Origin: a virus
Reading direction: 5' to 3' (one strand)
DNA length: 60,042 bases
Virus record (IMG/VR): IMGVR_UViG_3300047463_000151
Coordinates: 1-60,042 of that record
The notes below the pieces were generated by a model, which did no database searches, was not told the DNA's origin, and was given only the letters and a program-made list of their open reading frames with translations. The position numbers were made by a program, and so were the translations under genes. Positions 2,180 to 21,188 of the stretch are shown one piece after another (the stretch's first letter is position 1; every line of letters begins with the position of its first letter).

Positions 2180-2191
2180 GGCGAGGTGCGT

Positions 2192-2995
2192 ATGTCGAAA
2201 CAGCCGAAGCCTGACTACAACACCAAACGACAGTTACTCCCCGAAGAAATCGAGCCTATCCTACAAGAGTGGTGGGATAAACTACACTCCTACGAATGGC
2301 TTTACGCGAACATGCCATGCACGCCAGCCGTTACCAAGCGGATTCTGCGTGGTGAGTTCTACGCCGAAGTCAAAAAGCCGTGGGTAGGCAAAAGCGGGTA
2401 TCGAAAGCGCATACCGCTGGAAACGCGCATCGAGGCTAAGCGCCTGTACTACGAGTGCGGGTGGACCTCTACGCAACTCGCGGAGAAGTTCGGCGGCGAT
2501 GCGAAACTTTGGGCTATCGCAGTGGTCACGCATCCGTTGCCGAAGCCCAGGGACCAGTGGAAGAAGAAGCCGGTCCAGGAGTTCACGGCGCTGACCGATG
2601 AGCAAGTAATAGCAGGCATCGCGCTTTACTACGATACGATGTGCAAAATCAGCGTTATCGCGGAAATGTGGGATTGTACCTATCACCAAGCGCGGGGAGT
2701 GCTGGAGGGCAAGTATTACCCACACTTGGAACGGCCCCGCGATATGCAGGTTCCGTGGGGTCAGCCGCACCCGCGTCAATTCCGCGAAGACAAAGGACCA
2801 GCGGTGAAGCAGGCGCTCCGCGACTATGTGAAGAACGACTGGTCGGTAGGTCAACTCGCACGGGCGTTAGGCACACGGCACTTCGTCGCGGAGGGCATCA
2901 TCAAGGGCACCAAATTCAAGCGCGTTCAGCGGCCTCGTAGTTTGCAAATGCTCATCGAAGAAAAACAACTGTTCGGCGACGATTGGGACGAGTAG
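2192..2995 (+). CDS. Multi-HTH repeat protein (four modules)
   Basis: A 267-residue protein built of about four copies of a 45-55 residue helix-turn-helix-like unit (about residues 15-57, 73-117, 129-186, 198-248). Each runs aromatic-x-x-G-W-T/S, a short helix with LA, a turn, a second helix, then I-x-x-G and a tail V-x-R-P. The same unit recurs in five other genes here (5974-6555, 16945-17136, 17327-18094, 18087-18455, 18452-18796). Units of this kind resemble DNA-binding HTH tails seen on phage HNH endonucleases, but no HNH motif is present. GAGG lies just before ATG 2192; GTG 2186 is an alternative. Likely DNA-binding; target unknown. Confidence 0.65.
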   Translation: MSKQPKPDYNTKRQLLPEEIEPILQEWWDKLHSYEWLYANMPCTPAVTKRILRGEFYAEVKKPWVGKSGYRKRIPLETRIEAKRLYYECGWTSTQLAEKFGGDAKLWAIAVVTHPLPKPRDQWKKKPVQEFTALTDEQVIAGIALYYDTMCKISVIAEMWDCTYHQARGVLEGKYYPHLERPRDMQVPWGQPHPRQFREDKGPAVKQALRDYVKNDWSVGQLARALGTRHFVAEGIIKGTKFKRVQRPRSLQMLIEEKQLFGDDWDE

Positions 2996-4915: not shown

Positions 4916-5152
4916 ATGCCGCCATATACCTGCCCGTTGATTGACCATATCCAGACCCAATTCGCTGACCGGCCTGTGTCGTTGCCGCCGATAGCGTTTC
5001 AAGGCGTCATCCTCGATGACCTTCACTCGATGCTCGAGGCGCTCCGAGTAGCGAACGCTGACCTACGGATTGGGTGTGAACTTGCGTTGGATCTTCAGCG
5101 CGAGAACGACGAACTACGCGACGAGGTAGCGAGGTTGCGTCGGTCGCTATGA
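4916..5152 (+). CDS. Hypothetical protein with C-terminal coiled coil, 78 aa
   Basis: The last 35 residues (LALDLQRENDELRDEVARLR) have clear leucine heptads, so it probably oligomerises. Last gene of the rightward block; its end overlaps the convergent leftward gene by 6 bases. Confidence 0.55.
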   Translation: MPPYTCPLIDHIQTQFADRPVSLPPIAFQGVILDDLHSMLEALRVANADLRIGCELALDLQRENDELRDEVARLRRSL

Positions 5153-5443
5153 CTTCATTTCGCGTTCAGCGGCCTTGCGTGCGTGCTCGAGTCCACGGAG
5201 CGCGGCTTCTTGAATCGACCGCTCTTTGAGCGTGATGTCGGGTGCGTTCGCTGCCAGGCGTGCCGCGATGATAGCGTCGGTGAGCCCGTGTAGTACGACT
5301 TCGTGTTCAGTCCGGTGCCATACGAGTTCGTCGCCGTAACGTAGGCGGAACAGCGCGAGTAGAGCGTCGGTAGCGCCGTCGCGGTTTGTGTGGCGTAGGA
5401 AGTTGACGGCGAAGGGCGCGAGTTTGACGGCGTAAGTTTGCAT
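5147..5443 (-). CDS. Hypothetical protein, 98 aa
   Basis: Alanine- and charge-rich, probably helical. ATG 5443 lies only a few bases after the CCCC end of dyad element copy 1 and has no Shine-Dalgarno, so the element itself may define initiation or a near-leaderless transcript. Last gene of the leftward block. Confidence 0.6.
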   Translation of the reverse strand: MQTYAVKLAPFAVNFLRHTNRDGATDALLALFRLRYGDELVWHRTEHEVVLHGLTDAIIAARLAANAPDITLKERSIQEAALRGLEHARKAAEREMKS

Positions 5444-5500
5444 AGGGGTAGGTCTGGAATTTGGGTTTGGAAACTAAATCGTAGGTAAAAAGCCGATTTC
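5444..5500 (-). promoter_or_regulatory. Dyad element copy 1
   Basis: GGGG at 5445-5448, then dyad AAATCG (5476-5481), 12 bases, CGATTT (5494-5499). This copy has perfect dyad arms. Read leftward it sits immediately before the gene starting at 5443. Five related copies have the same spacing. Confidence 0.75.
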
Positions 5501-5537
5501 GTTTCGTAGACTATCAGCTAAGTGATGACGCTAAGGG

Positions 5538-5786
5538 TTAGACCGGCCATGAAATCGGGAGCGAAGTAGCGTTAGAGGCGTGGTCGGCAATGTCCATGAC
5601 GACCTCGATGGCCCAATTATTTGCCTTGAAGTCGGCGAGGGCTTCTTCGTCGGTGGCGTAGTTGTAGCCTTTGGCTCTACCGGCGCTGCGTTGATGCTCG
5701 ATGGCTTCGTGGAGTGTAGCGATTTGGTACAACGGAGTGCATGTACCGCTCTGCGGGTCGAGCCAGCGGACGTAGCGTTGAAGCAT
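5538..5786 (-). CDS. Hypothetical protein, 82 aa
   Basis: Starts MLQRYVRWLDPQSG after a GAGGA ribosome site; a longer frame from GTG 5861 lacks one. Mixed alpha-beta protein of unknown function. Dyad copy 2 lies 145 bases upstream with a terminator-like hairpin in between. Confidence 0.6.
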   Translation of the reverse strand: MLQRYVRWLDPQSGTCTPLYQIATLHEAIEHQRSAGRAKGYNYATDEEALADFKANNWAIEVVMDIADHASNATSLPISWPV

Positions 5787-5878
5787 GGGTGGTCCTCGCG
5801 TGCAAAGGATCGTCGCGTGGCGGTTATAGCGCGGTTCGTGCGGATTGTGTGGCAGGCGCACGGATTGTATGCAGAAAA

Positions 5879-5903
5879 CCCCCTCGCTGTGACGCTAAGG
5901 GGG
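5879..5903 (-). terminator. Terminator- or attenuator-like hairpin
   Basis: CCCCCT (5879-5884) pairs with AGGGGG (5898-5903). On the minus strand it is followed by GGGTTTTC, a short U-run. It lies between dyad copy 2 and the gene at 5786, so it could attenuate a transcript starting at the element, or end one from the right. Confidence 0.45.
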
Positions 5904-5955
5904 TCGGTTTGGATTTTGGTATGGGAATCTAAATCGTGGCTGAAAAGCCGGTTTT
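5898..5955 (-). promoter_or_regulatory. Dyad element copy 2
   Basis: G-run 5899-5903, then AAATCG (5931-5936), 12 bases, CGGTTT (5949-5954). One arm base differs and would leave a G-T pair in RNA. Inner bases GGCT-GAAA-AGCC could form a nested stem. Confidence 0.7.
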
Positions 5956-5973
5956 GTTTCTATGGCGTCTAGG

Positions 5974-6555
5974 CTACGGGCGACCGGCTTCTAAGTAGGT
6001 TCGGCCTTTTACGATGTCGTTAGCGGCAGACTTCCCTACGCCCAAGTGCTGTGCGAGTAGCCGAGTGGACCAACCGTACTCTTGGCGTAATTCCAGCGCA
6101 GCCTCGACCTGCTGCACGGTGAGCTTGCGGTGTGGATAGTGGTCAGCCCGTTCGGGCCACGGGTACGCAAAGCCCGGTGGGCGTTCTACGTTACGCCAAG
6201 CGCGACCGCTGAGCACCAGCAGGGCCGTGGAGCGACACACACCAGCCAACCGCGAAAACGCTGCGGTTCCCATACGTTTTGCGACGTAAGCGCAAAGGAG
6301 GTCATAGCGTCGTTGCTGACGCTCTTTGGGGCTGAGTCCTTTCCAGGGGACAACGCGGCGAGGTTGACCCTTTGTGCCGTGCCAAGGGTAAGCAAAACCC
6401 CCTGGTCGCGGAACGTGCGGGTAGGACAAACCTTTGAGTAAGCACTTGGCCGCAGCGTTGCCTAACTTGAACCGCCTAGCGAACTGCTGCAAGGTCATAC
6501 GCTCCTCGACGTATTCGGTGAGCATGTCGGATACTTGCGCGTCGGTGAAGCGCAC
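5974..6555 (-). CDS. Multi-HTH repeat protein (three modules)
   Basis: 193 residues with three HTH-like units (about residues 5-58, 85-137, 143-193). The first two end in the family signature V-x-RP-x-GFAYPW. Start: GTG 6555 follows GGAGG by four bases. A longer frame to ATG 6591 would translate the dyad element copy 3 into a Pro/Gly-rich leader and is less likely. Paralogue of the rightward multi-HTH genes. Probably DNA-binding; it is a candidate to read the repeated dyads beside it, but that is inference only. Confidence 0.65.
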   Translation of the reverse strand: MRFTDAQVSDMLTEYVEERMTLQQFARRFKLGNAAAKCLLKGLSYPHVPRPGGFAYPWHGTKGQPRRVVPWKGLSPKERQQRRYDLLCAYVAKRMGTAAFSRLAGVCRSTALLVLSGRAWRNVERPPGFAYPWPERADHYPHRKLTVQQVEAALELRQEYGWSTRLLAQHLGVGKSAANDIVKGRTYLEAGRP

Positions 6556-6567
6556 GGTGCCTCCTTT

Positions 6568-6623
6568 GGGGGTGGGTATGGAAATAGGCATAGGAAAGCA
6601 AATCGTACCTATTTGGCCGATTT
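6568..6623 (-). promoter_or_regulatory. Dyad element copy 3
   Basis: G-run 6568-6572, then AAATCG (6600-6605), 12 bases, CGATTT (6618-6623). Perfect dyad arms. Directly followed leftward by the GGAGG ribosome site and GTG of the multi-HTH gene. Confidence 0.75.
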
Positions 6624-6645
6624 GCCATTGAATAAATCAGGCGGG

Positions 6646-7038
6646 TTACGCTGCTGACCTAGTGTTGAAAAGCCGCCTAGCCTCAGCGATGCCGCCCAAG
6701 CGTTGGATCATCTGGTAAATATCGGGCGCGTGGCCCCAGTCGTAAATTCCGCCCGTGGCTTCTATCAAAAATGAAACCCATCGGCGGTTCCACTCGTCTT
6801 GTTTGGCGCGTGCTGCTAACCGTGCAGCTTCGGCCTTTTCGTCGTCGGCGCGTTTCGCGTTAGCGCGGACCTCGGCGCTGGTAACCTTGAGCATTTTGGC
6901 GGCACAGCTTGTGCCGAAGTAGCGCGTCTCATTCTCGTCCAGGTCGGTTACGGCTATCGTCTTCTTCAGGTCTGAGCGCCCGCAGCAGTCGCACGCGGTC
7001 ACCTCGTCGGTCGTACCTTCGTATTGGTAGCGTAGCAT
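6646..7038 (-). CDS. Zinc-binding hypothetical protein, 130 aa
   Basis: Residues about 15-45 hold CDCCGRSDLKKT and a later FGTSCAAK, a Cys-rich domain often seen in phage proteins of unknown function, followed by a long charged helix and a C-terminal helical part. ATG 7038 follows GGAGG by four bases; dyad copy 4 lies just upstream. Confidence 0.65.
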   Translation of the reverse strand: MLRYQYEGTTDEVTACDCCGRSDLKKTIAVTDLDENETRYFGTSCAAKMLKVTSAEVRANAKRADDEKAEAARLAARAKQDEWNRRWVSFLIEATGGIYDWGHAPDIYQMIQRLGGIAEARRLFNTRSAA

Positions 7039-7050
7039 CGAGCCTCCGAT

Positions 7051-7108
7051 AAGGGGCCGGGTTGGAAATTGGGGAGGGTAAGGCAAATCGTAGGGGATTT
7101 GCCGATTC
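7051..7108 (-). promoter_or_regulatory. Dyad element copy 4
   Basis: GGGG 7053-7056, AAATCG (7085-7090), 12 bases, CGATTC (7103-7108). One base longer between G-run and dyad than copies 1-3. It fills the space between the stop of the gene at 7110 and the ribosome site of the gene at 7038. Confidence 0.75.
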
Positions 7109-7109
7109 G

Positions 7110-7316
7110 TTATCCGACAAGCAGTGAATCCAGACGGTCTAGCGCCAGCCTTACTAGGGCGTCAGTATGCTCGTCTTTACCAATTTCGTGGCTGAGCGCC
7201 TCGTCGCGAAGCTTGGTCCAAACATATACTTTGTGTTCGCGGCGGAATCCGCGACATGTGCCAGTAGTGTAGCGTTCGATAGAAACGAGCAGGTCAAGAA
7301 CTTCATCGGTGTCCAT
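7110..7316 (-). CDS. Hypothetical protein, 68 aa
   Basis: Small helical protein starting MDTDEVLDLLVSIERY. GGAGCC ribosome site before ATG 7316. No recognised domain. Confidence 0.6.
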   Translation of the reverse strand: MDTDEVLDLLVSIERYTTGTCRGFRREHKVYVWTKLRDEALSHEIGKDEHTDALVRLALDRLDSLLVG

Positions 7317-7349
7317 GGTAGGCTCCAGTGGTGGTTAGAGGGCGGCGAG

Positions 7350-7658
7350 CTAGGCCGCGAGCAGCGCAGCGAGTTCGTGGTGGTAGTCAACGCTGACATT
7401 GCCTCCCCACCGGATGTGCATCGTCCCAGTGATTGGATTCCCGCCAATTTCGCCGATTACCTGAACATTCGGCCAGTAGCCTTCGACTAAAACGTATTCG
7501 CCGTCGTAGTCGCTGACTGACGTTACGACGAAACTTGGTACTGTGTCCGCGATTTTTGTGAGTCCGAGGGCTTCTTCCACGCCCCATTCGCTAGGGTGCG
7601 CCATGGCCTCGGAACAGACGGCGCGGAGTTCATCAGTGAGTAGGATTTGGGTGGACAT
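7350..7658 (-). CDS. Hypothetical protein, 102 aa
   Basis: Starts MSTQILLTDEL after AGGAGCC; the frame from 7691 is longer but lacks a ribosome site. The C-terminal half is beta-rich (EYVLVEGYWPNVQVIGEI). Unknown function. Confidence 0.6.
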   Translation of the reverse strand: MSTQILLTDELRAVCSEAMAHPSEWGVEEALGLTKIADTVPSFVVTSVSDYDGEYVLVEGYWPNVQVIGEIGGNPITGTMHIRWGGNVSVDYHHELAALLAA

Positions 7659-7697
7659 GGTGGGCTCCTGTGGGTGGCTAGTGTAGGTCACGAAGGT

Positions 7698-7877
7698 TCA
7701 GCCGTATGGACGGACTGACCACCAGTTTTCCTTTTTGACTTCCGCGCTGCACGACTCACATTTGAGAGCCGACCACGCGAAATGGTAAACGGTCTGCAAT
7801 GCAGCGCATTCAGGGCAACGTACTAGCGTTCCGTCTCGGCGTGCGCGTGTATAGCGAGTGACGGGTGCGATGGTCAT
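7698..7877 (-). CDS. Small zinc-ribbon protein, 59 aa
   Basis: Two CxxC pairs (CPEC and CESC) about 20 residues apart form a probable zinc ribbon. AAAGGGAGA ribosome site before ATG 7877. Leader element B precedes it. Possible nucleic-acid or protein adaptor. Confidence 0.6.
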   Translation of the reverse strand: MTIAPVTRYTRARRDGTLVRCPECAALQTVYHFAWSALKCESCSAEVKKENWWSVRPYG

Positions 7878-7900
7878 GGTTTCTCCCTTTGTTGAAGTCG

Positions 7901-7943
7901 GCCACATACTTAGCCCTAGTGGGGCTGCGGATGGGGTCGGCTA
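7901..7943 (-). promoter_or_regulatory. Leader element B, copy 1
   Basis: A 43-base segment between the stop of the gene at 7941 and the ribosome site of the gene at 7877. It matches the segment at 8208-8250 closely (shared CCACAT, CTTAGCCC, GGGCT, CGGATGGG and TCGGC). Both form a hairpin AGCCC with GGGCT. It may be an intercistronic RNA structure. Confidence 0.6.
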
Positions 7944-8180
7944 TTCCTCATCGTTGCTATCGGTGCGGGCATGATTTGTGGTGCAATTGTCGGGACACTC
8001 GTCAGAGTGTTCACACATACATGCGTTCATGCAGGTTCCGTTGTCGCACAGAAGGCATACCGGCCCCAACTGGTAGGAGGGGTCATCTTCTTGTACGCCC
8101 CTATCGTTCTGACATAGTTTACATTCGCAGGTATTTTCTGCCCGCACGCCGAAGTACCATGCTTGTTTATTGGTATACAT
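7941..8180 (-). CDS. Cysteine-rich protein, 79 aa
   Basis: Ten cysteines in 79 residues (CECKLC, CLLCDNGTC, CMCEHSDEC, CPDNC), so probably a multi-metal-binding or knotted protein. ATG 8180 follows AAAGGGAGA. The longer frame from 8318 overlaps the upstream gene and is unlikely. Function unknown. Confidence 0.6.
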   Translation of the reverse strand: MYTNKQAWYFGVRAENTCECKLCQNDRGVQEDDPSYQLGPVCLLCDNGTCMNACMCEHSDECPDNCTTNHARTDSNDEE

Positions 8181-8207
8181 CGTGTCTCCCTTTGTTTTAT
8201 TGCCAGA

Positions 8208-8250
8208 CCACATGCTTAGCCCGATTAGGGCTACGGATGGGATCGGCCTA
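8208..8250 (-). promoter_or_regulatory. Leader element B, copy 2
   Basis: Second copy of the 43-base segment, again spanning from the stop codon of the upstream leftward gene (8248) toward an AAAGGGAGA ribosome site. The hairpin AGCCC-GATTA-GGGCT is kept although the loop bases differ. Confidence 0.6.
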
Positions 8251-8646
8251 GGTGAATGCGATCTTTCCGCTATCTGTGAAGTAAAGGTAAGATTGGCCGA
8301 ATGCGTGCGCGATCTCACTAAGTTTATCGCCAGCCTCGCCTAATCCACGGTCCCAAAATCCAGTGCCGTGGCCGTTGCGGGTAAGCCAGAAATCGTGACC
8401 CGCCCGCGCCTCGCAGTATTGGTCAGTAAATCTAAAAATACCGTTCGTATCGACAACGTAGAGAAAATTCTTACAGTCCGATACCAAGCGAATTAGCGAA
8501 TCACGGTTGAGATCCGCCCAATCCCAATCCTTTGGAAGATCCTCAGATCCTTCCTCAGTCCATTCGACCGCTTGGATATACGCTTGCATGAAGCGTGAAC
8601 CGCTGATGATGGACCAAAGTTCACTTTTCGTCAGTCGCTTGCTCAT
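8248..8646 (-). CDS. Conserved phage hypothetical protein, 132 aa
   Basis: Contains DFWLTRNGHGTGFWDR near residues 85-105, a signature I recognise from small hypothetical proteins of many phages, followed by a helix and LYFTDSGKI. AGGGGG precedes ATG 8646. Function unknown. Its leader resembles that of the amidoligase operon: both carry a CGATA...TGTAAGGC stretch about 25-45 bases upstream. Confidence 0.7.
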   Translation of the reverse strand: MSKRLTKSELWSIISGSRFMQAYIQAVEWTEEGSEDLPKDWDWADLNRDSLIRLVSDCKNFLYVVDTNGIFRFTDQYCEARAGHDFWLTRNGHGTGFWDRGLGEAGDKLSEIAHAFGQSYLYFTDSGKIAFT

Positions 8647-8770
8647 TGTGGCCCCCTGTTTGTTTGCCTTACACATATACCTTATCGCCACAAACGATCA
8701 CATGTAAAGTGTATTTTGAAGATAGATAGAAAATAGTTGAAACGCTAGTCGCTACCTAGCGAATACGCAT
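8647..8770 (-). promoter_or_regulatory. Leader shared with the amidoligase operon
   Basis: Read leftward it includes GGCGATAAGGTATATG, then TGTAAGGC and the AGGGGG ribosome site. The region before 13363 has GTCGATAGGTTATC then TGTAAGGC and AAGGGG. The match suggests a shared leftward promoter with a -10-like TATATG/TTATCT hexamer. No -35 is clear. Next to dyad copy 5 is a four-codon open frame (MRIR). Confidence 0.35.
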
Positions 8771-8828
8771 ATAGGGGCTGGTTCGGATTTTGCTATGGCA
8801 ATTTGAATCGTAGTCAAAATGCCGATTT
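8771..8828 (-). promoter_or_regulatory. Dyad element copy 5
   Basis: GGGG 8774-8777, GAATCG (8805-8810), 12 bases, CGATTT (8823-8828). It lies 125 bases upstream of the gene at 8646, unlike copies 1, 3 and 4, which sit at the ribosome site. Confidence 0.7.
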
Positions 8829-8872
8829 GAATTAGCGTATCGTTGTCGAGTGGCGTAATCGGCGACCAGGTA

Positions 8873-8931
8873 TAAGGGGCCGGTTTGGAATTTTGAATTC
8901 GGAATTGAAATCGTGGCGGATTTCCCGATTC
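8873..8931 (-). promoter_or_regulatory. Dyad element copy 6
   Basis: GGGG 8876-8879, AAATCG (8908-8913), 12 bases, CGATTC (8926-8931). It is in tandem with copy 5, with no clear gene between them, so a small gene may have been lost here. Confidence 0.7.
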
Positions 8932-9080
8932 AATTTTGCGATAGCCGGGAAAGTTCCGGCGGTGGAACGTGGCCGGGTCGTAGCGCGTGGCCTTAGCCGG
9001 TGGCGGGACTTGCGCCGTAGCTGGTAGGGGCGCTCGACGAGGTAGTGCGTAGCCCGTGGTCGCGGCCCTCGTCGCGTAGG

Positions 9081-9440
9081 CTAGGGGATATGCGGGACTA
9101 GCAGATACGCGGGTTCCCGGCCTACGGTGTCGCGGTATGCGTAGGTAGCGGCAAATACGACGTTTGCGGGTGCTTTGCGGCCTTCGAGGATATGGTATAG
9201 CGCGGCGGCTATGCGCTCGTCGGCGTGGGCGTGGGAAGCGTACCAGCTTGCTAGGCTAGGGTGGAGCGTAGTCCAACGGCGGGACCAAGCGCGGAGCGTA
9301 GCTACGTCGTGCGAGGTTGCGGTATCGTTGCCCTGCCATGCGTGGGCTAGGGCTTCTATGCGGGCGGATACGGTAGGCCACTGTGCAAGGGCGCTAAGCG
9401 GTGCCAACTCTAAGGCGAGAAACGCGGGTAGTGCGTGCAT
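9081..9440 (-). CDS. Hypothetical protein, 119 aa
   Basis: Composition looks protein-like (Ala/Leu-rich helices; ERIAAALYHILEG), unlike the surrounding spurious frames. However, no purine-rich ribosome site precedes ATG 9440 and the DNA is unusually G-rich on the plus strand like the flanking non-coding sequence. No domain recognised. Confidence 0.45.
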   Translation of the reverse strand: MHALPAFLALELAPLSALAQWPTVSARIEALAHAWQGNDTATSHDVATLRAWSRRWTTLHPSLASWYASHAHADERIAAALYHILEGRKAPANVVFAATYAYRDTVGREPAYLLVPHIP

Positions 9441-10233
9441 GGGGGCTAGGTGGTGCGGGTGGTGGTAGTGGTATGTATCCCGCTCGGTGCGTAGGCGGTT
9501 GCGGCGATAGCGTGGCCGTAGAGCTAGGGCGGGACGTAGCCGGTAGCGCGTGGCGACGGCGCTAGGTGGTGAGACTTGGCGGGATTTGTGGCGACTGCCA
9601 GCTAAGCGGAGTCAGGGCGAATCGTCCAGGCGAGCTAGACCGTGGCCCGTGGCGAGGGGCGACGAGGCTTGACGACGGCCAGCCGGTCAATTTTTGATAT
9701 TTTGCCATGTGGCAAATCTTCCCATCGCCGCTCCGATTTCCGTTTCGGGGCGGTTTCCCTAGGGGTCAACGGTCGAAACTTCCGTTTCGCTGGAAACGCG
9801 GAAAGGCGCTGCAAACCTACGCAATACGCAGGCGCGCAAAACGTAGGTCTGACCAGTTGAATGGTTATCGGTGGAAAGTATAGGATGGTTCGTTGTTTAC
9901 CTCCGATGCTTGCTATGGCGTCAAATCGGGCCGTTATGGGGCGATAGGGTATCGAGGCTATCGTTGGTCGCCCGTTGTCGCGGCGCGGCTATACGGGGCG
10001 AATGCGAAGCCGGGAAGGGGAAGCGTAGCCGTGCGGGTGCGGTGCCCCGTAGCGTGCAACCGAGAACGCAGGTTCGCCCACTACGGGTGAAACCGCCGGG
10101 TGTCGGCAACGCGGCACGGGTAGCCGTAGATTCAAACGCGGCGCGGCTATGGGCGGAGCCCGCTCGGAAGGCGGCGGGCGCTACGCGATAGCGCGATGGC
10201 AACGCAAAAAGCCGGACCACCGCTAGGGAAGCC
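9441..10233. other. Gene-poor, hairpin-rich region
   Basis: About 790 bases without a credible gene; the open frames here are Arg/Pro/Ala-rich and lack ribosome sites. The plus strand is G-rich with frequent TAGC and GTAG words. Stable inverted repeats include CCCGTAG (10046-10052) with CTACGGG (10081-10087) enclosing AACC/GGTT, GCGCTA (10178-10183) with TAGCGC (10189-10194), and TTTGCCA/TGGCAAA (9701-9716). It could encode a structured non-coding RNA, a replication or packaging site, or be decayed sequence. Confidence 0.4.
9701..9716. promoter_or_regulatory. Perfect palindrome TTTGCCA-TG-TGGCAAA
   Basis: Seven-base arms separated by two bases, flanked by AT-rich sequence on its left. The size fits an operator for a dimeric repressor. 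No gene start is adjacent. Confidence 0.4.
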
Positions 10234-10269
10234 CGGAAAAAAGGAAACCGGCGGGCATGGTGCCGCCGG
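10234..10269 (-). terminator. Rho-independent terminator of the amidoligase operon
   Basis: On the minus strand CCGGCGG (10263-10269) pairs with CCGCCGG (10248-10254) across an eight-base loop and is followed by TTTCCTTTTTT. It lies 25 bases after the stop of the glutamine amidotransferase gene. Confidence 0.85.
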
Positions 10270-10294
10270 GGTAGCGATAAATTCGTGGAGTTAG

Positions 10295-11383
10295 CTATAT
10301 TTTCATGCGAGACGATACGGCGGTGCCGAATACGGACGCATCCGCATAGCCGTAGTCGTCAAAATAGTCAGCATCGAACGACGAATCATCCCAATTTGCA
10401 TAATCGATAGCGTCTACAACGTCGAAAAACAATTCCTCGCTAAATTCGTCGTTTTCGTTGTATAGAGGATCGTTTTCGTCCAACGGATTGAAATCGTCAT
10501 CCCATACACGGCGAGCACTATTGCGGGATACCCCGTGGCGAACGGCGATACCCTCGGCAATTTTGCGATCCTCGCTATTTTCAATCTCGTCTGTATCGCC
10601 GTCAATTTCGCGAAACGATGCAATGGAAACAGCCTTTTTCGTCGCGTAATTTTTGCCGCCGATATACTCATCGAACGCCGAGAAACCATCGCGCCATGTA
10701 CGGGTGCCGGTTTTCGTGAACGTGAACACATCGCGCCGCGTTAGCGTGATTTTATCGTGCGTAATTTCGTAAATGTGACCCTCATCCATTGCGAATTGGG
10801 ATACCGCGTCAACCCCGGCTGCATGTAGCGCGTCGGCAACCGCCGATAACGTGGATGCGAAAACGATACCGAGATTTGTCCGCACCGCCGCGAATTCGCC
10901 GCCGTTGAATCGTCCAATTTGGATTTTTCCGGGGTTATTGTCATCATGCCATACAACGGTGCCATAACCGTCAAAATCCGAGAATGAATCGCCGATACTT
11001 AGGGCGTGGATTAAATGCATCGAATCGACCGCGAATCGGTGCCCGCGTAGCTTGTCAAGGGTGCCCGAATTGTAAATTACCCCGTTATGTGCGCCGATAA
11101 TCGACCCAAATGTGAACGGGTGCGCGTTGTCGCGGGAAATTGCCCCTTGCGTAGCGTACCGCGTATGGCCGAATCCGTAGCGGGAACGCGCCATATCTAG
11201 CAACGAAACCGCCGTAATTGGCCCTACGTCGCGCTGTACGGTGCCGCCGTGGAACGTGCCCCACGATTGATTGCCGCGTGAGTTCATGCGGTGGGCTAAC
11301 ACCGTCAAAATGACGGAACGTCGCGCTAGATCATCGTTCGATGGTTTCGTTTTTGTCCAGTATGCTCCGAATAGTCCGCACAT
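10295..11383 (-). CDS. Class II (Ntn) glutamine amidotransferase
   Basis: 362 residues. It starts MCGLFGAYW, so Cys2 becomes the N-terminal nucleophile after Met removal. Further class II signatures are present: RGNQSWG, GHTRYAT, HPF and AHNGVIYN. The enzyme class hydrolyses glutamine and passes ammonia to a synthetase; no synthetase domain is fused, so the neighbouring amidoligase is the likely partner. The C-terminal 60 residues are strongly acidic and aromatic (Asp/Glu/Tyr/Phe), unusual for the family. ATG 11383 follows AAAGGGGGATACC; the longer frame from 11449 would hide the catalytic Cys and is rejected. Last gene of the operon. Confidence 0.88.
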   Translation of the reverse strand: MCGLFGAYWTKTKPSNDDLARRSVILTVLAHRMNSRGNQSWGTFHGGTVQRDVGPITAVSLLDMARSRYGFGHTRYATQGAISRDNAHPFTFGSIIGAHNGVIYNSGTLDKLRGHRFAVDSMHLIHALSIGDSFSDFDGYGTVVWHDDNNPGKIQIGRFNGGEFAAVRTNLGIVFASTLSAVADALHAAGVDAVSQFAMDEGHIYEITHDKITLTRRDVFTFTKTGTRTWRDGFSAFDEYIGGKNYATKKAVSIASFREIDGDTDEIENSEDRKIAEGIAVRHGVSRNSARRVWDDDFNPLDENDPLYNENDEFSEELFFDVVDAIDYANWDDSSFDADYFDDYGYADASVFGTAVSSRMKI

Positions 11384-11440
11384 GGTATCCCCCTTTGCCT
11401 CTACGTTATCTTCAAAATATACAAATCGATGCGATAGAAA

Positions 11441-11459
11441 GGGGCACAAAGGGTGCCCC
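11441..11459 (-). terminator. Intercistronic hairpin, possible partial terminator
   Basis: GGGGCAC (11441-11447) pairs perfectly with GTGCCCC (11453-11459). On the minus strand CTTTCTAT follows, a poor U-run. It sits between the amidoligase stop and the amidotransferase start, so it may adjust their ratio. Confidence 0.55.
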
Positions 11460-11474
11460 GTTATAGGCTACGGA

Positions 11475-12869
11475 CTAGGCGAATTTCTCTTTCCGGCGGG
11501 TGAAGTATTGCCGGGAATCCTCGGTAGGGAGAATCCGCATGAGCGCGGCCCACGGCGTCATATCGCGCAATGCCTTTACATCTTCCACGTTATATTTTTT
11601 CGCAGTGTCGAGGATAGCGGTGCAAAGGACCGCCCAATTCGTGATCTTATCGGCGTCCACTGTGCCGGAATGACAACGGAATTCAACGGTTCCATGTTCG
11701 AATGCAGCCTGCAGATTCAGCCCGTAGTAGCGGGAGCCACCGGGTGAATTGCCATATTCGTTTTTTGCATCCTTGAATCTCATGGTATCGATTCGCGATT
11801 TCCGTACATAGGGCAACCCCTTAATCTCGGCCTTGACCTCTCGGATACGCTCGCGTTCCCAATCCTTCCGGCTTGCATATTCGTACTCGCCGCCCACGCG
11901 GTCGCGGGTCTGACGGATAGCCGCCACGAGCATTTGCCGCATATCCGCACCCGTCATTTTACGGGGCTGCCCCGCGTATTCGTTGATCACATAATCGTAA
12001 CGCTGACAATAGGTATTTGATCGGCGCGAATTGGGTAGCGTAGAGTAAACGGCCGATTCAACGTGCGCCCAAATCCAAAGTAAGCGGGCCCACGACGGAT
12101 AATTGAAATCGCGAGCGTCAACGTGCAGGTGCAGACCGCAACGGTTATCGACCTTTGCCGGGTTAGATTCCGCCGCCATATCGCGACAAATCGCGGTAAT
12201 TTGCTTGACGAATGTATCGCCGATTGCGGGTGCGGTATTCAATTCGCATCCGTTCGACACTGAACCGTCAGGTACGACGCTAACGTGCCATTCGTCGAGT
12301 GTTTCATTTGCGCACGATCCACCGCTCGCGATTTCAATCTCGGCGGCGATATAGCGGCGCGAGGGCAGGAACGCGGTGGGTTTACCCGGCCAAAATTTGA
12401 TAGGGTGCTTCCGCATATAGGGTAAGGACGAATCGCTGCAATCGCACCGCTCGGTGCATGTATCGCAATCGCTACAAAAAGGCTCATCCTCGCTATGGTA
12501 TTCGTTACACGTTTCGCAATACCGGCAATCGTGGTGCTCGGTACAGTTATCGCACTGGTCGCATACGCTGAACCAATCGTAATTGTGCCGGGTTTCGCAC
12601 CGTTCGCACCAGAAACAACGGTCGCATGAATCAACGCATCGCGTCATGGATCGTCGGTGTCCACCGTTGCAACCCTCGCAAATTGGCGCGTCATCCTCAT
12701 GGTGAGGCTCATTGCACGATCCACAGTGATATGTATCGTCGCAATAATCCCCTTCCGAATCTACCTCTACATCACACCCGTTAATTCCGCATGTAGGCGC
12801 AGGCTCCGGTTCAACGGGTGTCGCGGTTTCCGTTATGGTGGTTTCGTCGGTAATCGTGTTGGTTTCCAT
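11475..12869 (-). CDS. Cys-rich amidoligase (Amidoligase_2-like)
   Basis: 464 residues in two parts. Residues about 25-150 carry more than 25 cysteines in CxxC-type zinc-ribbon-like repeats (CDQCDNC, CETCNEYH, CSDCDTC). The C-terminal part matches the COOH-NH2 amidoligase family: AAEIEIA, CGLHLHVDARDF, YGLNLQAAFEHGTVEFRCHSGT (in two pieces: YGLNLQ and GTVEFR), and a helix ITNWAVLCTAIL. These enzymes use ATP to join a carboxyl to an amine; phage and bacterial members occur beside class II amidotransferases, as here. The substrate is unknown; cell-wall peptide or protein modification are options. The Cys-rich domain may recognise the target. AAGGGGAAACC precedes ATG 12869. Confidence 0.8.
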   Translation of the reverse strand: METNTITDETTITETATPVEPEPAPTCGINGCDVEVDSEGDYCDDTYHCGSCNEPHHEDDAPICEGCNGGHRRSMTRCVDSCDRCFWCERCETRHNYDWFSVCDQCDNCTEHHDCRYCETCNEYHSEDEPFCSDCDTCTERCDCSDSSLPYMRKHPIKFWPGKPTAFLPSRRYIAAEIEIASGGSCANETLDEWHVSVVPDGSVSNGCELNTAPAIGDTFVKQITAICRDMAAESNPAKVDNRCGLHLHVDARDFNYPSWARLLWIWAHVESAVYSTLPNSRRSNTYCQRYDYVINEYAGQPRKMTGADMRQMLVAAIRQTRDRVGGEYEYASRKDWERERIREVKAEIKGLPYVRKSRIDTMRFKDAKNEYGNSPGGSRYYGLNLQAAFEHGTVEFRCHSGTVDADKITNWAVLCTAILDTAKKYNVEDVKALRDMTPWAALMRILPTEDSRQYFTRRKEKFA

Positions 12870-13363: not shown

Positions 13364-14270
13364 TTGGTTCCCCTTGTTTGTCTCGCCTTACAGATAACCT
13401 ATCGACACGGGGCGTACACTCTTTGAGTAAATAATTTGGAACACGATAACATTTTTTATCGCGAATTGCGGTCGCGGATAGTGTCGCCTGGACGTTGTAT
13501 ATGGAAAGGTGGTGTCCGCGAAAATGAAACGGGCTTGTTTTGGGGTTGTTTTGGGAAGGTGGAAGCGTATTGCGTAGGTTCAAAGGACGTTATCGCTAGG
13601 TGATAAAAGTGGAGTTTTGAAGCTGTATATCCGTTTATTCGGATGGATGGATGGAAGTGTTGGGGGTAATCTGGGAGGGTGGGTGGTGGATACTGTTCGT
13701 TCGCCGCCGATTATACAAGTACTGACAGCTTGCACAACAAGAACGGTCCCACCGCGCCCAAAATTCGCCCCGCTTTCCGTTTTGAAAATCCCACCACCGA
13801 ACCACGCTAACGCTTAGCCTCCGATGGTTACTAGCCTCGCTCCACGCTTATCGTCGCGTCAAGCTGCGACTAACCGTAGGCGCTCGGAAGGCATACGTAT
13901 ATATATGGAGCGCATTTTATAGCCGTTCGCGTATATAGCGCGTTGACGCTACGCTTTACCATTCGGCGCTAACCGCCCGAACCGTCACGGCGGGAACCCT
14001 CTAAGACGACGACGGCCTACGCTCGCCGCTCGCTAGCCGCTCGTCGAGCTTGTCAACGCGGACAATCGGCTGAAAGCATAGGTCTAACCTGGTTCGATAA
14101 AGTATTTCATTTATTTTGTGGTCGCACGTTGACGCGTTCACGTTTCGAGTATACGTTGAAGGTGAACCCAACGGAGACAAGCAAAGGCACGCGACCCGAC
14201 CCCTAACGATCATTACCGGGGGTGTATTTCGGTTTTCGCGACCAGGGGAGGGGGTCTTTCGGACCCTTTG

Positions 14271-14298
14271 CCGTTCGATAGATTCCAAATCTACAGCG
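14271..14298. repeat. 28-bp direct repeat, copy 1
   Basis: Starts CCGTTCGATA and ends AATCTACAGCG. Identical at 27 of 28 positions to the copy at 14355-14382, 84 bases away. This copy contains a short palindrome TAGATT-CCA-AATCTA. Confidence 0.7.
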
Positions 14299-14354
14299 AA
14301 CCCGCCTGCTCAGTCCGCCTCATCAGTCCGTTTCGCGCACAAGATATGCCTTCC

Positions 14355-14382
14355 CCGTTCGATACATTCCAAATCTACAGCG
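14355..14382. repeat. 28-bp direct repeat, copy 2
   Basis: Second copy; the single difference (C for G) breaks the palindrome present in copy 1, so direct-repeat rather than hairpin function is more likely. Two copies are too few to call iterons. Confidence 0.7.
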
Positions 14383-14957
14383 CCCCATCCAGCCAAGTCT
14401 CAAATCGAGTCCGCTAGTCCCAGGCATACGGTTCATTCACCGCATTTGGCCTTTACGCCCTCGTTTACAATCCGCCTGGGACAACGCAGGTCCACGTTTA
14501 CCAGCGCCGCAATACGCCCCAATTTATGTATTTATTTCCTAATTTACCGAAGCAAGCGTCAACGGTTGGCTACGGTTGAATTCGATGTGTCCCACTCGTT
14601 CTACTCGGAGTCCACTAAATTAAGGGCGAAATTAACGCGAAACGCTTAAGGGCCATTTCGCGTCTTTCCCGGCGATGCTCCTACACTAAAAAGCGTCAAC
14701 ACGGTCGAATTTGTAGCATTTTGCAAAAACCTACTTCCTAAGCCTATTTCTATTTTTACAATTGCAAGTATCATGCCAGCGATATGTATAAGGTACAACG
14801 CTAACTATACGCGACACACACCCTAATTTGCGTGTTTTGCGACGACTAGTGTTACACGCGGCTAGTGCATACCGGGGGCATAGTTCACCAACCCTAAAAA
14901 AGTACGGTTGAAAAACGCGCCCTCGATTTTTTAATTTACCTTGGTCTGGAGGCCCCT

Positions 14958-17326: not shown

Positions 17327-18094
17327 ATGGATGAAATGACGGTTCGTGAAGCCCTAGAAGCGGCTCTGAAATCTGGTTCAATCGACAAAAAAGCCATTCT
17401 ATGCGCTCATATCAAGCATAGATCGAAAGAGTATGTGCTGGTCGAGAACTACACGCCTATTCAGGCTAAGAAGTTCTGGGCCTCGTTGGAATTCGTACCG
17501 GAGTTCAGCGAACTATCCGGCAACGTGTGGCTCACGCACAATCGCTGGCTGCACCATACATGGGACAGCGACGGCCTAGAGCATTGGGAACTCCACGAAC
17601 CGCCCGTTGTACCCGATGTATGCAGACCCGAAGATACCGACGTATCCGATGCGAAGTGGCGTTCTGACGCGCTCGCCGAATACGTCAAGCACAGGATGAC
17701 CCCCAAGCAATTTGCCGCTCATGTAGGGGTGACGCGAACGCAGGCGTACAACATTCTACGCGGTCAATCGTGGCGCGACATCGGGCGTCCCGATGGGTTC
17801 AAATTTCCGTGGAAATCACAAAAAACGAACCGGCAACTGTGCGCCGAACGCACCGAAATCTACCGTGAAGGCGTGCGTCTGTGGGCTGAGAACGGCTGGA
17901 CGTTCCGTCAACTGGCTGAGCACATGGGCGTACCGGCCTATACGGCGTGGACCGCTGTGCAGCGCGAATATAAGGCCGTTGGTAAAGCCGAGGTCGATGC
18001 CGTGGTGCGCTGGCTGCGTGTGGTTGCAACAAACGAACCGCAAGCCGAGGTCTTCGCAGACCTTATCGAGCGCGGTGAGTACAAAGATGCCTAA
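17327..18094 (+). CDS. Multi-HTH protein with extra N-terminal domain, 255 aa
   Basis: Residues 1-105 form an unknown domain rich in Trp and His (SGNVWLTHNRWLHHTWD). Two HTH units follow (about 112-165 and 178-215). The first carries the full signature YVKHRMTPKQFAAHVGV, then RDIGRPDGFKFPW. Overlaps the next paralogue by eight bases. Confidence 0.65.
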   Translation: MDEMTVREALEAALKSGSIDKKAILCAHIKHRSKEYVLVENYTPIQAKKFWASLEFVPEFSELSGNVWLTHNRWLHHTWDSDGLEHWELHEPPVVPDVCRPEDTDVSDAKWRSDALAEYVKHRMTPKQFAAHVGVTRTQAYNILRGQSWRDIGRPDGFKFPWKSQKTNRQLCAERTEIYREGVRLWAENGWTFRQLAEHMGVPAYTAWTAVQREYKAVGKAEVDAVVRWLRVVATNEPQAEVFADLIERGEYKDA

Positions 18095-18455
18095 GTTCCT
18101 CGACCATGATTTCGTGCGTTCGTGCTTGGAGGACTACGTTAAAGAGCGTATGTCTCCCTACGAACTCGCAGAACACATGGGCGTAAGCACCGATTCAGCG
18201 TATGAATTGCTATGGGGCCGAACCTGGAAGAAGGTTCCACGCCCCGAAGGCTTCCAATACCCGTGGCCCGAACGGCAAGAATTTATGGTCAAACAGAACT
18301 TTAAGAAGCGCCTGCCACGCTATCGTGCGGGCATCAAGCGTTATGAAACCGAAGGGTGGACGTTGCACCAACTCGCCGACCACCTTGGCATCGCCAAAGG
18401 TAACGCTTGGGAACTTGTCGCCCGTGTGCGTGCGCTAGATAAGGTGAAGCCATGA
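18087..18455 (+). CDS. Multi-HTH protein (two modules), 122 aa
   Basis: Starts MPKFLDHDFVRSCLEDYV inside the end of the preceding gene. Unit 1 has YVKERMSPYELAEHMGVS and VPRPEGFQYPW; unit 2 has EGWTLHQLADHLGI. The longer frame from 17793 is out-of-frame sequence of the previous gene. Close paralogue of its two neighbours: tandem duplication. Confidence 0.7.
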   Translation: MPKFLDHDFVRSCLEDYVKERMSPYELAEHMGVSTDSAYELLWGRTWKKVPRPEGFQYPWPERQEFMVKQNFKKRLPRYRAGIKRYETEGWTLHQLADHLGIAKGNAWELVARVRALDKVKP

Positions 18456-18796
18456 ATGACGATAATGACCGGGGTTGGCGAGCGGAATGCCTACAAGACT
18501 ATGTAGACAAACGTATGACGCCCAAAGATTTCGCTGAGCACATCGGCGTCAGCCTGACGACCGCTCACCGTATTTTGAGTGGTCGAGGCTGGCAAGACAT
18601 ACCGCGTCCCGATGGGTTTGAGCATCCGTGGCCGAAGCAGGACCGGCGCGCTGATTTGATCGAGCAGCACCCGTTGTATCGGAAGGGACTACAACTGTTC
18701 AAAGACCTGCGCTGGACGCATCATCAACTTGGTCTGTATTTAGGCGTATCTGCTGATGCCGCATACCGCGCTACGTTGCGCGAGGGCATCGAATGA
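18452..18796 (+). CDS. Multi-HTH protein (two modules), 114 aa
   Basis: Unit 1 YVDKRMTPKDFAEHIGVS with IPRPDGFEHPWP, unit 2 LRWTHHQLGLYLGVS. ATGA-coupled at both ends. Third in a row of paralogues. Confidence 0.7.
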   Translation: MNDDNDRGWRAECLQDYVDKRMTPKDFAEHIGVSLTTAHRILSGRGWQDIPRPDGFEHPWPKQDRRADLIEQHPLYRKGLQLFKDLRWTHHQLGLYLGVSADAAYRATLREGIE

Positions 18797-18951
18797 GCCG
18801 CTATACAACGGGGCGCGTGGCGCTGCGCGGTATCGGCTTGCCGACGACCTACGATCCGGCGCTGACGCTAGTGCTGACGGGCGATATAGTAGTAGATTTG
18901 GCATCTATCGAAGAATACAAGCGTGCGACGAAGGAGAAAGACCGTGGGTGA
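18793..18951 (+). CDS. Small hypothetical protein, 52 aa
   Basis: Begins MSRYTTGRVALRGIGLPTTY; ATGA overlap with the HTH gene, and overlaps the next GTG start by eight bases. A lysine/glutamate-rich end encodes the ribosome site of the next gene. No domain. Confidence 0.55.
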   Translation: MSRYTTGRVALRGIGLPTTYDPALTLVLTGDIVVDLASIEEYKRATKEKDRG

Positions 18952-20360: not shown

Positions 20361-20528
20361 ATGATGTCTGCGATCAACGAACCGATGCCACGCATGGAGC
20401 CTATCAAGCGAACGACAACGGCCCCGGTGCGCTCTGTGGGGTTAGTCCCGCCGAGTACATCGGAGGCCGTCAAAATTATATTGTCCGCTGAGGTTCAGTG
20501 GATGAAAAGTAAAGGTATAATCCGATGA
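20361..20528 (+). CDS. Small hypothetical protein, 55 aa
   Basis: Translates from a double ATG (MMSAINEPMPRMEP) after GAGG and ends in an ATGA overlap with thyX. Basic, proline-containing N-terminus and a short helix. The coupling to thyX supports translation. Confidence 0.55.
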   Translation: MMSAINEPMPRMEPIKRTTTAPVRSVGLVPPSTSEAVKIILSAEVQWMKSKGIIR

Positions 20529-21187
20529 GTTGTGCGATAGACGCGGTGTATGCACGACAAGAGCGGCTGAATCACTGTGAACTGATTGGCTACTACGGTG
20601 ACGACGAGACACACGCGCTTTCAGCGTGGACCAGTACATCACGCGACCTCACACCGGATAAGCGCGAACGCATCCCGGCATTGTTGAAGATGCTCGCCGA
20701 GAACGGGCACCACACGCCGTTTGAAAAGTCGGCGCTTCACTTCTTAGTGACGGTCGATACCGCTACGCATATTCACCTATTGAAGCACCGTATTGGCGTT
20801 TCGATCAATGGCGAGTCGGCGCGTTACAAGGAATTGAAGGGCAACAAGGGCTATGTGCCCGAAGATTGGCCGGATGGTGAGCGGCTGGAACTGCTCGCGT
20901 TCTTGGAAGACGCCTGGCAACGCTACCATGCTTGCATCGAACGTCTAGAAGCGCAGGGCGTATCTCGCAAGCGAGCGAAAGAGTCTGCGCGGTTCTACTT
21001 GCCCTATGCGAATCAAATTGTGATGGACGTACAGTTCAATTGGCGTTCATTCCATCATTTCTTGGCGCTACGAAAGAAGCCAGAGGCGCAAGTTGAGGTT
21101 CGCGACATAGCCGCAACGATGCTTGCGCTAGTGCGCGAATTACCAAATCGTCCTTTTGAACATACGATTGCTGCGTTTGGGTATTGA
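20525..21187 (+). CDS. thyX: Flavin-dependent thymidylate synthase ThyX
   Basis: 220 residues, near the family's usual length. The ThyX motif is present as KHRIGVSINGESARY (residues 87-101), with K in place of the usual first Arg. Upstream HTPFEKSALHFLV and downstream QVEVRDIA also fit. It makes dTMP from dUMP with FAD, NADPH and methylene-tetrahydrofolate, supplying phage DNA synthesis. Coupled by ATGA to the 55-residue gene and followed directly by the DNA methyltransferase. Confidence 0.95.
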   Translation: MSCAIDAVYARQERLNHCELIGYYGDDETHALSAWTSTSRDLTPDKRERIPALLKMLAENGHHTPFEKSALHFLVTVDTATHIHLLKHRIGVSINGESARYKELKGNKGYVPEDWPDGERLELLAFLEDAWQRYHACIERLEAQGVSRKRAKESARFYLPYANQIVMDVQFNWRSFHHFLALRKKPEAQVEVRDIAATMLALVRELPNRPFEHTIAAFGY

Positions 21188-21188
21188 T

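What the first reader, a model, noticed from the sequence alone, without database searches (positions are those of the whole stretch)
5444..8931. Six rigidly spaced copies of an undescribed dyad element in a leftward gene block
GGGG, then 27-28 bases, AAATCG, exactly 12 bases, CGATTT, is found six times (dyads at 5476, 5931, 6600, 7085, 8805, 8908). Copies 1, 3 and 4 sit directly at the ribosome site of a leftward gene; copy 2 lies 145 bases upstream. Bases between the blocks vary while the spacing is kept, implying recognition by a protein or by RNA structure. The layout recalls the start-associated SAS/ESAS repeats of cluster K mycobacteriophages, but the sequence and geometry differ. It could be a phage promoter class, a repressor array or a translation element.
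Basis: partly seen in the sequence, partly recalled or inferred. Interest (0 to 1): 0.85.

Follow-up and report, generated by a model that had tools for sequence, protein, structure and literature searches.

The report
Repeated 61-bp phage control element
An uncultured virus of bacteria carries six copies of a 61-base DNA signal in front of a small block of its genes, all pointing the same way; it is most likely a private on/off switch for those genes, of a general sort known from other phages but with a sequence found nowhere else.

Summary
Six copies of one composite element lie at 5445-5505, 5900-5960, 6569-6629, 7053-7114, 8774-8834 and 8876-8937. All are on the minus strand, reading the same way as the leftward genes, and all are intergenic. 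It is a 36-37 bp imperfect dyad (rAAnnnAAATCGGS-N9-ACGATTYnnnTTnC), then a C-rich block (TCCnnnCCnnCCCC) that shifts by 0 or 1 bp. Identity between copies is 65-78% inside and 25% (random) outside. Profile scores are 39-47 bits against 13.8 for the next site. No array was found in 2.9 million viral contigs, 85,000 genomes, 50,697 phages or 72,556 plasmids. Relatives exist (84% terminase), but only as fragments lacking this block, so conservation is untested.

The dyad arms do not covary, which gives no support for an RNA hairpin. The best reading is a double-stranded DNA operator/promoter cassette for each leftward gene cluster. It resembles the ESAS elements of cluster K mycobacteriophages in layout but fails their sequence tests (no SAS, no TTGACA). 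Transcript starts and the binding protein are unknown. A three-HTH protein encoded behind copy 3 is a candidate binder. This is a new variant of a known kind, of moderate interest.

The parts
5445..5505 (-). Copy 1 of the element (dyad 5476-5499; C-rich block ending CCCC at 5445-5448); abuts ATG of gene 5147-5443
5900..5960 (-). Copy 2 (dyad 5931-5954); 112 bases before ATG 5787
6569..6629 (-). Copy 3 (dyad 6600-6623); followed by AAAGGAGG and GTG 6555 of the three-HTH gene
7053..7114 (-). Copy 4 (dyad 7085-7108; 1-bp longer form); left end overlaps the TAA stop of gene 7110-7316; followed by CGGAGG and ATG 7038
8774..8834 (-). Copy 5 (dyad 8805-8828), upstream of gene 8248-8646
8876..8937 (-). 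Copy 6 (dyad 8908-8931; 1-bp longer form), 103 bp upstream of copy 5
5147..5443 (-). 98-aa gene of unknown function; coding by codon usage; its ATG follows the element by one base, with no Shine-Dalgarno
5538..5787 (-). Small gene downstream of copy 2
   Evidence: start codon read from the sequence
5974..6555 (-). 193-aa protein with three predicted tri-helical HTH modules; candidate DNA binder, downstream of copy 3
6646..7038 (-). Gene downstream of copy 4
8248..8646 (-). First gene after copies 5 and 6; phrog_1915 family, relatives in many phages
5875..5904 (-). Terminator-like hairpin (ACCCCCUUAGCG...GCGAGGGGGU then UUU) whose left arm uses the CCCCC of copy 2

Best explanation
Each copy is a phage-specific operator/promoter cassette read as double-stranded DNA. 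A sequence-specific protein (probably phage-encoded and dimeric or multi-domain) binds the dyad. The adjacent C-rich block, held at a fixed distance within 1 bp, is the part that sets where leftward transcription starts, just before the downstream gene. Two tandem copies head the leftward block, and single copies sit in the intergenic gaps inside it, so one regulator can switch all its gene clusters together. Shown: the six copies, their orientation, their intergenic position, sharp conservation edges, and no arm covariation. Inferred: that protein binding happens, that it acts on transcription, and the sign of the effect. Unknown: the transcript start. It could be just after CCCC, which would make the gene behind copy 1 leaderless, or just after TACGATTT, which would give a conserved C-rich leader.
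For: Six copies and no others in 60 kb, far above chance. All lie in intergenic DNA in the genes' orientation. Identity is 65-78% inside and 24-25% in both 60-bp flanks, so this is selection on the site rather than a recent duplication. Conserved positions are primary sequence, and arms pair no better with their own partner than with another copy's. A 0/1-bp shift between two conserved blocks is typical of promoter or operator spacing (general knowledge). Cluster K ESAS elements have a comparable build: an inverted repeat with a 12-14 bp spacer, 46-47 bp in all, intergenic in front of non-structural genes, with a putative promoter inside (PMC3203893, PMC11373665). In our element a weak -10-like YACGAT sits at the inner end of the right arm, as TACTGT does in ESAS (sequence reading). 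The phage encodes several multi-HTH proteins.
Against: No sigma-70 -35/-10 pair is present in the element. Copy 2 is followed at once by a terminator-like hairpin built from its own CCCCC, which would attenuate a transcript starting in the element. A 9/12 sigma-70-like match (GTCACA-N18-TACAAT) lies just downstream of copy 2 instead, and a separate promoter-like motif lies between copy 5 and gene 8646. No second genome with the element was found, so conservation is untested. Nothing here shows binding or transcription.
Confidence: 0.5

Rival explanations
1. An RNA-level leader element: the transcribed dyad folds into a hairpin and the G-poor, C-rich tail is a protein- or small-RNA-binding leader that controls translation or termination of the next gene.
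For: Copies 1, 3 and 4 lie exactly where a translation leader would lie. Single folds are more stable than shuffles for five of six copies (z -2.1 to -2.8). The C-rich tail is nearly free of G in copies 1-3 (sequence). Copy 2 runs into a terminator-like hairpin.
Against: The six folds are not the same structure. Arms do not covary, p about 0.2. There is no Rfam match even at E 1. Copies 5 and 6 lie well upstream of any start codon.
Confidence: 0.2
2. A DNA-binding site with a role other than starting transcription, for example genome organisation, replication, recombination, or a mobile intergenic cassette that promotes gene shuffling as proposed for the PeSL cassettes of T4-like phages.
For: The copies are dispersed in gaps of a block of small orphan genes, and the left end of copy 4 overlaps the upstream stop codon. 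A sigma-70-like match lies outside copy 2.
Against: All six copies share one orientation and their 3' ends sit at gene starts in three of six. Flanks show no trace of transferred neighbours. Other intergenic gaps of the same block have none.
Confidence: 0.15
3. A promoter for a phage-encoded RNA polymerase or sigma-like factor, with no separate operator; the whole 61 bp is contacted by that enzyme and its activator.
For: No host-type promoter hexamers are present in the element. The element has a fixed geometry and ends at gene starts, with copy 1 implying a leaderless message.
Against: No polymerase or sigma factor was recognised among the window proteins scanned, though the record is probably incomplete. 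61 bp is long for a single-subunit polymerase promoter.
Confidence: 0.12
4. A conserved proline-rich peptide or upstream part of the downstream proteins, i.e. coding sequence.
For: In copies 3 and 4 the right half is open and in frame with the gene, reading MPISIPTPKGG and MPYPPQFPTRPLIGG.
Against: Copies 1 and 2 have an in-frame TAG before the block, the frame changes with the 1-bp insertion in copies 4 and 6, and variation is not at third positions (sequence).
Confidence: 0.01

Closest known systems
Extended start-associated sequences (ESAS) of cluster K mycobacteriophages (Anayavirus and kin)
   Same: Intergenic composite of imperfect inverted repeat with a 12-14 bp spacer, total length constant within 1 bp, several copies in one orientation in front of non-structural genes; arms do not covary, so a DNA-binding site was proposed (PMC3203893); each contains a putative promoter (PMC11373665).
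   Different: No sequence similarity (best profile score in Anaya 10.3 against 35-40 for true copies); no TTGACA/TACTGT pair in the arms; no 13-bp SAS next to the start codon; an extra conserved C-rich block follows the dyad; different phage lineage.
SAS of cluster K mycobacteriophages
   Same: Conserved sequence immediately before start codons.
   Different: SAS is GGGATAGGAGCCC and includes a Shine-Dalgarno core; here the conserved part contains none and copy 1 has none at all.
PeSL promoter/stem-loop cassettes of T4-like phages
   Same: Repeated intergenic regulatory cassette with a dyad among small non-essential genes.
   Different: PeSLs join a terminator stem-loop to a host-type early promoter (background knowledge; cited in PMC4503421); here the dyad is no terminator and no sigma-70 promoter is present.
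Stoperators of cluster A mycobacteriophages (L5)
   Same: Repeated repressor-type sites spread through one genome.
   Different: Those are short asymmetric 13-bp sites; this is a 61-bp composite.

Membership tests
ESAS (cluster K mycobacteriophages) | Imperfect inverted repeat (15-17 bp arms, 12-14 bp spacer), intergenic, in gene orientation | tested here: met
   12-bp imperfect arms, 12-bp spacer, all six intergenic and in gene orientation; arms are shorter than in ESAS
ESAS (cluster K mycobacteriophages) | TTGACA -35 and TACTGT-like -10 spaced 17-18 bp inside the repeat | tested here: not met
   No TTGACA-like hexamer in the left arm; only a weak YACGAT in the right arm
ESAS (cluster K mycobacteriophages) | Linked to a downstream SAS (GGGATAGGAGCCC) | tested here: not met
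   No match within 2 mismatches anywhere in the window
ESAS (cluster K mycobacteriophages) | Sequence similarity to ESAS | tested here: not met
   Profile of our left block scores at most 10.3 in Anaya
Structured RNA leader of a known family | Match to an Rfam covariance model | tested here: not met
   No match at gathering score or at E up to 1
Structured RNA leader of a known family | Compensatory changes between the arms | tested here: inconclusive
   Own-arm pairing 23 versus 20.2 +/- 2.8 for permuted arms; no support found, but with only six copies the power is low
PeSL | Terminator stem-loop followed by a sigma-70 early promoter | tested here: not met
   No terminator scored on the dyad on the minus strand and no promoter in the element
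Host sigma-70 promoter | TTGACA/TATAAT-like hexamers at 16-18 bp | tested here: not met
Phage repressor operator (stoperator-like) | Bound by a phage repressor | not testable with these tools
   needs binding experiments

The most novel reading that the evidence does not exclude
The 61-bp unit is read module by module by the phage's own tandem-HTH proteins (three or more HTH units in a row, one encoded directly behind copy 3). It would be a new kind of phage transcription switch that launches nearly leaderless messages without a host-type promoter.
Probability: 0.1. Interest if true: 0.7.

Novelty: new variant of a known kind. Interest (0 to 1): 0.42.

Why it matters
Long, precisely spaced intergenic elements repeated only in the non-structural block of a phage mark genes that are probably switched together, and they usually point to an unknown regulator. 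Here both the sequence and the lineage are new, the copies give an immediate consensus for finding the binding protein, and copy 1 offers a clean test of leaderless starts. It also suggests that the ESAS-like layout has a parallel, apparently unrelated by sequence, outside mycobacteriophages.

Tried and rejected
RNA hairpin: folded all copies and ran an arm-swap test; no common fold, no covariation. Coding peptide in the right half: stops in copies 1 and 2, and frame changes. Sigma-70 promoter inside the element: none. A rightward promoter on the other strand (TTTGGA...TAAATC, or an alphaproteobacterial GCTANAWC-like read) was considered by eye: only copies 1 and 2 fit, and it would run against the genes.

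Relatives by motif: strict pattern in viral contigs 0; loose left half gave 7 single, unrelated hits without the C-rich block; genome contigs gave 2 chance hits without the left arm; blastn of a consensus in phages and plasmids gave only partial hits at E 1 to 4. Relatives by protein: terminase found four fragments; the HTH, amidoligase and 301-1773 proteins found none; the DNA methylase found 80 unrelated phages, none with the element. One first-pass pattern of mine was mis-specified and found nothing. A script meant as a control on ESAS arm pairing mis-set the arms and was not used. A PDB fold search of the three-HTH protein gave no significant match.

Full report
WHAT THE WINDOW IS. The window is a whole IMG/VR virus record of 60,042 bases with no end repeats, 56% G+C. 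It holds terminase, portal, head and tail genes, ThyX, DNA methylases, an amidoligase/glutamine amidotransferase pair and many small unknown genes. No close isolate was found: terminase identity to the isolates listed is below 30%. The capsid protein is distantly like those of Caulobacter phages and a few cyanophages, so the host is not known.

THE OBSERVATION. The six dyads are real and at the stated places. Aligned on the minus strand, the unit reads rAAnnnRAAYCGGS-N9-ACGATTYnnnTTnC-N5/6-CnAWWTCCnnnCCnnCCCC, 61 bp (copies 1, 2, 3, 5) or 62 bp (copies 4, 6). A pattern of the right two thirds matches these six places and nothing else, against 0 in 100 shuffles. Left-block profile scores are 39-47 bits; the next site in the window scores 13.8, while shuffled sequence reaches 18.1. 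Mean pairwise identity is 0.65 in the left block, 0.78 in the right block, and 0.25 and 0.24 in the 60 bp on either side. The edges are therefore sharp, and the copies are not young duplications of larger segments.

SURROUNDINGS. All copies face the way of the leftward genes of the block from 8646 down to 5147. That block ends against the convergent rightward genes. Copies 6 and 5 stand in tandem upstream of gene 8248-8646. Copies 4, 3, 2 and 1 fill the gaps before genes 7038, 6555, 5787 and 5443. Copies 3 and 4 are followed by good Shine-Dalgarno sequences (AAAGGAGG, CGGAGG). Copy 1 ends at CCCCT-ATG with no Shine-Dalgarno, although the gene is clearly coding by codon usage (0.26 per codon against negative values in most other frames). 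Right after copy 2 the minus strand carries ACCCCCUUAGCGUCACAGCGAGGGGGUUUU, a terminator-like hairpin that uses the element's own CCCCC.

DNA OR RNA. The dyad could fold as RNA and several copies fold better than shuffles, but not into one shared structure. A simple test is whether each copy's arms fit each other better than they fit another copy's arms. They do not: 23 pairs against 20.2 +/- 2.8, p about 0.2. With six copies the power is low, but nothing points to a conserved hairpin. Rfam has no match. Conserved primary sequence in both arms with neutral spacers is what a DNA-binding protein would leave.

RELATIVES. The strict pattern has no match in 2.9 million viral contigs and two chance matches in 257 billion bases of prokaryote genomes, neither with the left arm. 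A loose pattern of the left block alone gives seven isolated single hits without the C-rich block. Four records share the terminase at 84% but are 6-13 kb pieces that do not reach this block.

BEST EXPLANATION. I favour a double-stranded DNA operator/promoter cassette that lets one regulator control every gene cluster of the leftward block (confidence 0.5). Shown are the anatomy, the orientation, the sharp conservation and the lack of detectable covariation. Inferred are binding and the link to transcription. The transcript start is not known. After CCCC it would make the copy 1 gene leaderless. After the weak -10-like YACGAT at the inner end of the right arm it would leave a conserved C-rich leader. 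No sigma-70 pair exists in the element. A phage factor, or a host factor of unknown specificity, would then be needed. The window encodes several proteins built from repeated HTH units; a model of the one behind copy 3 has three tri-helical modules (mean pLDDT 74). It is a candidate binder, nothing more.

AGAINST IT. The hairpin after copy 2 would attenuate a transcript from that copy. A 9/12 sigma-70 match lies after copy 2, and a motif shared by the leaders of genes 8646 and 13363 (GTGKCGATARGKTATMTG) may be the real promoter of the first gene. In that case copies 5 and 6 would be operators or upstream sites rather than promoters.

COMPARISON. The nearest known kind is the ESAS of cluster K mycobacteriophages: inverted repeats with a 12-14 bp spacer, 46-47 bp in all, intergenic, before non-structural genes, arms without covariation, and a putative promoter inside (PMC3203893, PMC11373665). 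I fetched Anaya and read its ESAS: TTGACA begins the left arm and TACTGT the right arm, followed by SAS. Our element has the same plan but no such hexamers, no SAS and no similarity. It may work like an ESAS; it is not a member. It also differs from PeSL cassettes (no terminator stem, no host promoter) and from stoperators (short asymmetric sites).

VERDICT. A real, strong, undescribed cis-element of one uncultured phage; a new variant of a known kind; function inferred, not shown.

Noticed in passing
7882-7940 and 8184-8250, minus strand: A second leader repeat, about 63 nt at 78% identity (GCCGAYCCCATCCGYAGCCC..GGGCTAAGYATGTGG..AACAAAGGGAGA), directly before two adjacent small genes; contains a short hairpin AGCCC/GGGCT.
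   Followed up: partly
8674-8691 and 13391-13408, minus strand: GTGKCGATARGKTATMTG followed by GTAAGGC..ACAAAC..GGGG is shared upstream of genes 8646 and 13363; looks like a promoter plus leader of two leftward units.
   Followed up: partly
14265-14399 and 18892-18912: Two tandem 51-nt repeats in a non-coding stretch hold the 21-mer GTAGATTTGGMATSTATCGAA; a third copy with one difference lies inside a gene on the other strand.
   Followed up: no
8938-10294 and 13364-14957: Two long stretches mostly without convincing genes; the first has strong GC skew (0.24 at 9001-10000), apart from a possible 119-aa gene at 9081-9440.
   Followed up: partly
2186-2995 (+), 5974-6555 (-), 17327-18796 (+): A family of paralogous proteins made of repeated HTH units with the motif RPxGFxxPW between units; no HNH nuclease domain reported with them by Pfam.
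   Followed up: partly
10295-12869, minus strand: Amidoligase next to a glutamine amidotransferase-like protein, a possible peptide-modifying or nucleotide-modifying pair.
   Followed up: no
20525-24560: ThyX gene overlapping a 1134-aa DNA methylase whose matches are split at the two ends, with a weak thymidylate synthase match in between; an insertion such as an intein is possible.
   Followed up: no
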